A program made the position numbers and the translations under genes. From Clostridiaceae bacterium BRH_c20a (GTDB lineage Bacteria; Bacillota; Peptococcia; Peptococcales; BICA1-8), in assembly GCA_000961765.1 (NCBI GenBank), contig LADT01000013.1, positions 62,001 to 126,000 on the forward strand: 64,000 bases of DNA, in the 5' to 3' direction. Shown here piece by piece: positions 2,645 to 61,656 of the stretch. The stretch's first letter is position 1. The number at the start of each line of letters is the position of its first letter. The notes beneath the pieces are model-generated. The model was not told the origin of the DNA, searched no databases, and saw only the letters and a program-made list of their open reading frames with translations.

Positions 2645-2715
2645 CGATGCATCCCTTAAGCTAGACCTTTGAGTAGATGCGTCCTGTTATGTTCACAAGC
2701 ATGGGATGCATCCCA
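2645..2715. repeat. Family H (about 30-bp modular repeat) array H1
   Basis: GATGC|ATCCCTTAAGCTAGACCTTTGAGTAGATGC|GTCCTGTTATGTTCACAAGCATGGGATGC|ATCCC. Confidence 0.88.
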
Positions 2716-2812
2716 ATATCTCAACCTAATATAGATTCTATAAACTCGGTGACACGATGTCACGGTAGCACGTCAAGAGAGCTAGACATTCATGGTGACA
2801 CATTACTTTGGC

Positions 2813-4042: not shown

Positions 4043-4253
4043 AAGGTTAAGGTTTCGCTCACTTCATTCACTAGGTTAAGGTTACTAAAGGAGCATTTGT
4101 ATTTGAATCTAGCGAAGCGAAATCTTAATCTTAATCTTGGTCTTGATCTTGATCTTGATCTTGATCTTGATCTTGATCTTGATCTTGATCTTGACCTTAG
4201 CCTCAACCTCAACCTCAACCTCAACCTTAACCTTAACCTCAGCCTCAGCCCTA
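4043..4253. repeat. Family A (hexamer hairpin element) copy A1, with (CTTGAT)n tract
   Basis: AAGGTTAAGGTTTCGCTCACTTCATTCACTAGGTTAAGG ... TCTTGATx9 CCTTAGCCTCAACCTCAACC... Confidence 0.9.
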
Positions 4254-5540: not shown

Positions 5541-5580
5541 TTTCTGTAGCACTGTAGCACTGTAGCACTGACATACTGTA
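5541..5580. repeat. Family G octamer array (CTGTAGCA)n
   Basis: CTGTAGCA CTGTAGCA CTGTAGCA CTGACATA CTG. Confidence 0.88.
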
Positions 5581-8424: not shown

Positions 8425-8481
8425 TCACTGGTCACTGGTCCCTGGTCCCTGGTCACCGGTCCCTGGGCCCTGGTCACCGAG
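8425..8481. repeat. Family B heptamer array B1
   Basis: CACTGGT CACTGGT CCCTGGT CCCTGGT CACCGGT CCCTGGG CCCTGGT CACC, period 7. Confidence 0.9.
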
Positions 8482-29574: not shown

Positions 29575-29765
29575 AAGGTTGAGGTTTCGCTTCGCTAGGT
29601 TGAGGTTAAGTAGTAATGCTTTAGCATTACTAAGGTTTAGGTTTCGCTCACTTTGTTTCGCTAGGTTGAGATTGAGAAATACTTTGAGTATCACTTAACC
29701 TTAGCCTTAACCTTAACCTTAATTGTTAACTAACCTTAACCTTAACCTCAGCCTTAACCTCGACC
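29575..29765. repeat. Family A copy A4, inside the S10 operon (rplW-rplB gap)
   Basis: AAGGTTGAGGTTTCGCTTCGCTAGGTTGAGGTTAAGTAGTAATGCTTTAGCATTACTAAGG...CTTAACCTTAGCCTTAACC... Confidence 0.92.
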
Positions 29766-55104: not shown

Positions 55105-55149
55105 TATTATCTCCTCCTCTGTTTACTTATGGGTAAAGCTTTGTGGTCA

Positions 55150-55300
55150 GCATCCGATGAATGGCATTTTCCTGGGATGCATCTGCTATTAGGTCTTACT
55201 GCATGATGCATCTGATGATTGTGAATTTGTTTTGATGCATCCTTTAAGCTAGACCCGGGTGCAGATGCCACCTATGATACTAGCATGCATGGGATGCATC
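55150..55300. repeat. Family H array H3, five 29-30-bp units
   Basis: GCATC boundary (GCCACC at one junction) at 55150, 55179, 55208, 55237, 55267 and 55296; palindrome GATGCATC at most boundaries. Confidence 0.92.
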
Positions 55301-55345
55301 CCATAATATTTACCTTTAAGCAGATTCATGCCTTTTTTTGTACGC

Positions 55346-55790
55346 AAAAAAGTCCCTCATCTCCTACAGAGACGAAAGACTTCGCGGTTCCACTCTGGTT
55401 GAACAGTAATTATAATTACCGCTCCACTCATTCGGGCTTTTAACGGTGCCAACCGGAAAAACCTACGGTTTATTGGAGAGCCAACAAAAGGTTAAGGTTT
55501 CGCTTCGCTAGGTTAAGGTTGAGATAAGACCAGAAATTAAACCCGGACTAAACCTTAGCCTTAGTCTGACCAACAAAATTACTTAGAAGCTAACCTTGAC
55601 CAATAAGATTTGACCTAAAAGTTAAGTCAACCTTAACCTGTTATCAGGCGTAGCCAGATAACACTTCAGCTTTTCGATTCACGGGTGCACTTCACTTCTA
55701 CCGGAGCCTAGGTTTGCTTACAGCCGACGACAAACCCTCTCTGGAGGTTCAATAAAAACTACTCTCCCGGTCATTATCTTTACTTATTTA
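55346..55790 (-). promoter_or_regulatory. T-box leader, Cys (UGC specifier), upstream of cysE-cysS; interrupted by a repeat element
   Basis: Minus strand: stem I (GACCGGGAGAGTAG...CTCCGGTAGAAGTGAAGTGCACCCGTG), T-box AGAGTGGAACCGCGAAG, terminator AGTCTTTCGTCTCtgtaGGAGATGAGGGACTTTTTT. Candidate specifier UGC in GTGAAG-UGC-ACC matches the downstream Cys genes. Confidence 0.9.
55488..55640. repeat. Family A copy A8, inside the Cys T-box leader
   Basis: AAGGTTAAGGTTTCGCTTCGCTAGGTTAAGGTTGAG...CTTAGCCTTAGTCTGACCAACAAAATTACTTAGAAGCTAACCTTGACC...CAACCTTAACC. Confidence 0.92.
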
Positions 55791-60846: not shown

Positions 60847-60907
60847 TTAATCTTAATCTTAACCTTAACCTTAACCTCAACCTTAACCTTAACCTCAACC
60901 TCGCCTT
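60847..60907. repeat. Family A copy A10 (C-rich hexamer arm only)
   Basis: TTTAATCTTAATCTTAACCTTAACCTTAACCTCAACCTTAACCTTAACCTCAACC. Confidence 0.85.
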
Positions 60908-61440: not shown

Positions 61441-61443
61441 TGT

Positions 61444-61656
61444 CAGGGACCAGGGCTCAGGGACCAGGGCTCAGGGACCAGGGCTCAGGGACCAGGGCTC
61501 AGGGACCAGGGCTCAGGGATCGGGGATCGGGGACCAGGGCTCAGGGATCGGGGCTCAGGGACCAGGGCTCAGGGATCGGGGATCGGGGATCGGGGATCGG
61601 GGATCGGTGAACAGGGACCAGGGATCAGTGATCAGGGATCAGTTACCGGTGCCCGG
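61444..61656. repeat. Family B heptamer array B6, about 30 units
   Basis: (CAGGGAC CAGGGCT)n ... (CGGGGAT)n CGGTGAA CAGGGAC CAGGGAT CAGTGAT, strict 7-bp register. Confidence 0.95.

What the first reader, a model, noticed from the sequence alone, without database searches (positions are those of the whole stretch)
55150..55300. Five tandem 29-30-bp modules separated by the palindrome GATGCATC upstream of cysE
Seen: boundaries at 55150, 55179, 55208, 55237, 55267 and 55296 (steps 29, 29, 29, 30, 29). The GATGCATC-like core is constant while the interior of each module differs. This is an iteron- or mini-CRISPR-like layout (8-bp palindrome + about 21-bp interior), but no cas genes are present. 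The array lies between the T-box terminator and cysE, so it is transcribed when the switch reads through.
Basis: partly seen in the sequence, partly recalled or inferred. Interest (0 to 1): 0.72.

Follow-up and report, generated by a model that had tools for sequence, protein, structure and literature searches.

The report
Dispersed modular repeat upstream of cysE
The stretch in front of cysE is one copy of an apparently undescribed family of small, scattered, non-coding repeats, built from 29-base modules and found only in one little-known group of Clostridia; it behaves like other bacterial hitch-hiking intergenic repeats and is not a CRISPR or a cysE-specific switch.

Summary
The array is real. 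Exact GATGCATC lies at 55176, 55205, 55234 and 55293, with degenerate boundaries at 55147, 55264 and 55323, so there are six 29-30-bp modules, one more than reported. It is not unique to cysE: the genome has 134 GATGCATC against 6 for the reversed control, 41 pairs at array spacing against 0, and about 25 related loci, one of them in this window (2646-2741). The interiors are not unrelated spacers; they are recurring module types that align across copies in a fixed order (77-80% mean column identity). An asymmetric module motif points inward from both sides (>>><<<), with ends GGCATC...GATGCC. Three of four family-mates carry the elements; a scan of about 85,000 species genomes found the strict pattern in two of these only, plus one unrelated tandem repeat. 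Sites turn over: iscS-thiI holds a 179-bp copy here but only a short gap in three relatives. Best reading: a new family of non-autonomous BOX/BIME/MITE-like modular intergenic repeats, one copy of which sits in the cysE leader after the T-box terminator. CRISPR, iteron and regulon readings fail. A selected RNA structure lacks covariation support. The mobilising enzyme and any host function remain unknown.

The parts
55149..55332 (+). Whole element copy (six modules B1 A1 B2 A3' B3' A4'; + is the orientation in which the family was aligned, antisense to cysE)
   Evidence: Sequence; alignment with six other copies
55147..55154 (.). Left half-core TCAGCATC (terminal boundary; GGCATC in other copies)
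55155..55175 (+). Module B1 interior
55176..55183 (.). Core GATGCATC (exact)
55184..55204 (+). Module A1 interior TGCTATTAGGTCTTACTGCAT
55205..55212 (.). Core GATGCATC (exact)
55213..55233 (+). Module B2 interior
55234..55241 (.). Core GATGCATC (exact); module direction switches after it
55242..55263 (-). Module A3' interior CTTTAAGCTAGACCCGGGTGCA (type A, reversed)
55264..55271 (.). Degenerate core GATGCCAC
55272..55292 (-). Module B3' interior (type B, reversed)
55293..55300 (.). Core GATGCATC (exact)
55301..55322 (-).
55323..55332 (.). Right terminal boundary GATTCATGCC (GATGCC in other copies)
2646..2741 (+). Second copy in the window: three-module right-half form A3' B3' A4' (cores 2646, 2676 GATGCGTC, 2705; right end approximate)
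55365..55783 (-). T-box leader of cysE (context)

Best explanation
The array is one copy of a dispersed, lineage-specific family of small non-coding modular repeats. A full copy is about 180-200 bp: five or six interiors of about 21 bp separated by the palindrome GATGCATC, ending in half-palindromes (GGCATC...GATGCC), with the asymmetric module motif facing inward from both ends. Copies spread to new intergenic sites as non-autonomous units, presumably moved by an enzyme supplied in trans that reads the palindromes or the ends (inferred; the enzyme was not found), and afterwards gain or lose modules. The cysE copy sits between the T-box terminator and cysE, so it is transcribed on read-through, and it most likely has no dedicated role in cysE control. 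Shown: dispersal, shared module order, lineage restriction, presence/absence differences between relatives, different module number at cysE. Inferred: movement in trans, direction of the changes, lack of dedicated function.
For: About 25 related loci in the genome; 41 core pairs against 0 in control and 134 cores against 6. Ordered alignment of copies. Single inward switch of module direction: 39 >< steps against 1 <>. Mostly intergenic: 56 of 67 copies overlap no ORF of 80 aa or more; flanks tandem 40, convergent 8, divergent 5. Orientation to tandem genes near random: 7/7 in the window's genome, 12/5 elsewhere. Unrelated neighbouring genes. Clean empty site at iscS-thiI in G001, G002, G004. 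At cysE: six modules here, two in G003 at the same place and orientation, none in G001, G002, G004. Few sites shared between genera among held loci. Restricted to one family.
Against: No target-site duplication at the four copies whose two ends could be placed. No autonomous partner or cognate transposase found: Y1_Tnp counts do not follow element load. The G004 loci held are an incomplete sample, so the rate of site sharing is only roughly known. Loss in relatives, instead of gain here, is not excluded for any single site.
Confidence: 0.77

Rival explanations
1. The modules are a selected array of protein-binding sites: a host DNA-binding or nucleoid protein binds the 8-bp palindrome at 29-bp steps and uses the elements for chromosome organisation or transcription control.
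For: The palindrome is far better conserved than most interior positions and strongly over-represented; the spacing is tight, 28-30 bp.
Against: No functional theme among neighbours, no preferred orientation, sites mostly not shared between genera. Conservation of whole interiors in order points to copying of a unit. Compatible with the best explanation as a secondary role.
Confidence: 0.12
2. The element works as RNA: in the cysE leader and elsewhere it forms one long hairpin that stabilises transcripts or terminates them.
For: Both strands fold better than dinucleotide shuffles (z -3.3 and -4.4); the inward-facing layout allows opposite cores to pair.
Against: Almost no compensatory change: 0 of 37 pairs in G004 copies, 1 of 33 in the window genome's copies. 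Arms of one copy pair no better with each other than with arms of other copies (p 0.41 and 0.85, small samples). Interiors pair only slightly better than shuffled (mean z -0.5 to -0.7). No Rfam family.
Confidence: 0.08
3. It is a cysteine- or cysE-specific regulatory array acting with the T-box.
For: Lies in the T-box leader; another copy lies upstream of cysK.
Against: About 25 copies lie beside unrelated genes; absent at cysE in three relatives that keep the T-box leader; no array upstream of the cysK orthologues of G001, G002, G003.
Confidence: 0.02
4. CRISPR-like or iteron-like array.
For: Regular short palindromes with interiors of about 21 bp.
Against: Interiors are shared between loci in fixed order; the strict repeat is only 8 bp; copies are dispersed beside housekeeping genes with opposed directions inside each array; no plasmid match; viral pattern matches are unrelated tandem repeats.
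Confidence: 0.01

Closest known systems
BOX elements of Streptococcus pneumoniae (boxA-boxBn-boxC; PMC3049150)
   Same: Small non-coding intergenic repeats made of modules, with variable module number between copies, lineage-restricted, thought to be non-autonomous; one BOX copy is reported to form a composite with T-box riboswitches
   Different: BOX has three dissimilar modules with terminal inverted repeats and target duplications; here the modules are 29-bp units sharing an 8-bp palindrome in an inward-facing array, with no target duplication seen
REP/BIME elements and their RAYT transposases (PMC2817692)
   Same: Mosaic arrays of regularly spaced palindromic units, extragenic, many copies per genome
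   Different: BIME units alternate in orientation, REPs carry a GTAG-type tag and copy number follows a cognate RAYT; here direction switches only once, there is no such tag, and the genome richest in elements has only a Y1_Tnp fragment
Prokaryotic MITEs (review PMC10969869)
   Same: Short, non-coding, dispersed, inverted ends (GGCATC...GATGCC)
   Different: No target-site duplication and no parent transposon identified
Foldback elements of eukaryotes (from general knowledge, not looked up)
   Same: Inverted halves built of short tandem units
   Different: Eukaryotic and far larger; an analogy of layout only

Membership tests
MITE | Short, non-coding, many dispersed copies | tested here: met
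   About 180 bp, about 25 related loci, mostly intergenic
MITE | Terminal inverted repeats | tested here: inconclusive
   Only six bases GGCATC/GATGCC are shared at both ends; beyond that the end modules are of different types
MITE | Target-site duplication on insertion | tested here: not met
   None at the four copies with both ends placed
MITE | Related autonomous transposon | tested here: inconclusive
   Only Y1_Tnp was tested; other families not tested
REP/BIME | Linked RAYT transposase whose presence follows repeat abundance | tested here: not met
   Y1_Tnp matches G000 19, G001 1, G002 0, G003 1, G004 one fragment; elements are most numerous in G004; no arrays in the Y1_Tnp loci sampled
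REP/BIME | Units in alternating orientation | tested here: not met
   39 >< steps and 1 <> step in 67 elements
BOX element | Modular build with variable module number between copies | tested here: met
   Two to eight modules per copy; six against two at cysE in G000 and G003
BOX element | Homology to boxA/boxB/boxC sequences | not tested
   No direct comparison with pneumococcal BOX sequences was made
CRISPR array | Near-identical repeats of more than about 20 bp with unique spacers | tested here: not met
   8-bp core only; interiors recur at other loci
CRISPR array | Adjacent cas genes | not tested
   Not searched with models; neighbours seen are gltX, cysE, cysS by sequence
Iteron array | Same-direction repeats beside a replication initiator on a replicon | tested here: not met
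   Opposed directions, dispersed beside housekeeping genes, no plasmid match
Structured RNA family | Covarying base pairs or an Rfam match | tested here: not met

The most novel reading that the evidence does not exclude
The inward-facing >>><<< array is a joined pair of multi-site ends read by a dedicated, unknown recombinase or architectural protein that binds a ladder of GATGCATC palindromes at 29-bp steps: a new class of mobile repeat, unrelated to BOX, BIME or classical MITEs.
Probability: 0.2. Interest if true: 0.62.

Novelty: new variant of a known kind. Interest (0 to 1): 0.42.

Why it matters
It adds an apparently undescribed repeat family with an unusually regular internal design (8-bp palindrome, 29-bp step, a single inversion of module direction) to the small interspersed repeats of Firmicutes. 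Its spread over several genera, a module-number difference at an orthologous site and a clean empty site make it a usable system for asking how modular repeats such as BOX and BIME spread and change length. For cysE it means the array should not be read as a regulatory part of the T-box leader without experiment.

Tried and rejected
CRISPR/iteron: rejected on shared interiors and dispersal. Selected RNA hairpin: no covariation, no within-copy arm matching, weak interior pairing. RAYT mobilisation: counts and neighbourhood do not fit. Cysteine regulon: one copy lies upstream of cysK as well as one upstream of cysE, but other flanking genes are unrelated (purE, purQ, uvrA, argB, thiI, trmB, hisA, spoIIIAF), no array lies upstream of the cysK orthologues of G001-G003, and three relatives lack the cysE copy. 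Phage or plasmid origin: three viral pattern hits are unrelated tandem repeats, no plasmid hit. L004 (Clostridiales GWF2_38_85) is a different tandem repeat that merely contains the 8-mer. Literature: searches for the 8-mer with 'repeat' and for modular intergenic repeats returned no paper recognisably on this family in the held library, judged from titles and abstracts.

Full report
Observation. The sequence holds exact GATGCATC at 55176, 55205, 55234 and 55293, a degenerate core GATGCCAC at 55264 and a half-core TCAGCATC at 55147; steps are 29, 29, 29, 30, 29. A sixth module runs to GATTCATGCC at about 55332. In the whole genome (4.5 Mb, 92 contigs) the 8-mer occurs 134 times against 6 for the reversed control, and pairs at 18-26 bp separation 41 times against 0.

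Not a single locus. Blastn of the array finds about 25 other loci in the same genome (29 matches at E<1e-3 including itself, a few of them parts of one locus). One is in this window at 2646-2741, a three-module form. Seven copies from the window's genome align with 77% mean column identity and eleven from G004 with 80%. The interiors are therefore a small set of recurring modules in fixed order: B1 A1 B2 A3' B3' A4' in the window's genome, and B1 A1 B2 A2' A3' B3' in G004.

Anatomy. Each module is the 8-mer plus 20-22 bp. An asymmetric motif near the middle (roughly [AT]G[TC]nA) gives modules a direction; within an element the direction changes once, inward-facing (39 >< steps, 1 <> step). The motif was read off the same data and copies share ancestry, so this describes the family and is not an independent test. 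Ends in the window's genome are GGCATC and GATGCC. Shorter forms occur: left half only (B1 A1 B2), right half only (A3' B3' A4') and a two-module form at G000:C17:56744.

Distribution. Among four genomes of the same GTDB family, G001 and G004 have the two-core pattern (29 and 120 pairs), G003 has copies with degenerate cores and G002 has none detectable. The rest of the 46 class members searched show no three-core pattern. A scan of about 85,000 species genomes for the strict three-core pattern hit only the two MAGs that share sequence with G001 and G004, plus one unrelated tandem repeat. No plasmid match was found, and the viral matches are coincidental tandem repeats.

Context and turnover. 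56 of 67 collected copies overlap no ORF of 80 aa or more; flanks are tandem 40, convergent 8, divergent 5 (ORF calling was simple). Orientation to tandem genes is near random. Neighbouring genes are functionally diverse. Few sites are shared between genera: among held loci only cysE (G000/G003) and one G001/G004 site, though the G004 set held is incomplete. The iscS-thiI junction is a clean empty site: a few to about 30 bp in G001, G002 and G004, but a 179-bp copy in the window's genome (iscS named from the reading frame, not by a model). At cysE the T-box leader is visible by sequence in all five genomes, while the element has six modules in the window's genome, two in G003 in the same orientation and position, and none in the other three. 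No target duplication was seen.

RNA or DNA. Both strands fold better than dinucleotide shuffles, but that follows largely from the self-complementary cores. Predicted pairs show essentially no compensatory change; arms of one copy do not match each other better than arms of other copies (small samples); interiors pair only slightly better than shuffled. A selected RNA structure is not supported.

Mobiliser. The only transposase family tested, Y1_Tnp, is abundant in the window's genome (19 matches) but nearly absent from G004, which has the most elements, and the Y1_Tnp loci sampled carry no arrays. The enzyme is unknown.

Comparison. The family works like BOX elements (modular, variable length, dispersed, sometimes in T-box leaders; PMC3049150) and like BIMEs (PMC2817692), but it fails tested BIME features (RAYT link, alternating orientation) and the MITE target-duplication test. 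It is best called a new variant of the known kind 'small modular interspersed repeat', not a member of any of these families. The cysE copy is probably a passenger in the leader; that last step is inference.

Noticed in passing
window 55365-55783 (-): The cysE T-box carries an insertion of about 200 nt with AGGTTAAGGTT(TCGCTTCGCT) repeats between stem I and the antiterminator, which lowers its Rfam score to just under the cutoff.
   Followed up: partly
window 61443-61642: Heptad-based tandem array (7/14/28-bp units, consensus TCAGGGACCAGGGC), 200 bp.
   Followed up: no
window 4122-4247, 8425-8479, 29694-29760, 60847-60901: Other short tandem repeats, several apparently intergenic (ATCTTG, CCTCAA, CTGGTCACCGGTCC, CTTAAC/TTAACC); CTGTAGCA octamers at 5544 and 32030. 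The genome seems rich in several unrelated short-repeat families, some lying beside GATGCATC elements.
   Followed up: no
G000 genome (e.g. L102, L106-L113): 19 Y1_Tnp (IS200/RAYT-like) matches in the window's genome against 0-1 in its four family-mates.
   Followed up: partly
L035:1473-1569: Another element copy lies upstream of cysK; with cysE this makes two cysteine genes, but the pattern does not hold in relatives.
   Followed up: yes
L051:1523-1763 (G000:C7): An unusually long copy with nine boundaries (eight modules), suggesting module gain or fusion of two copies.
   Followed up: no
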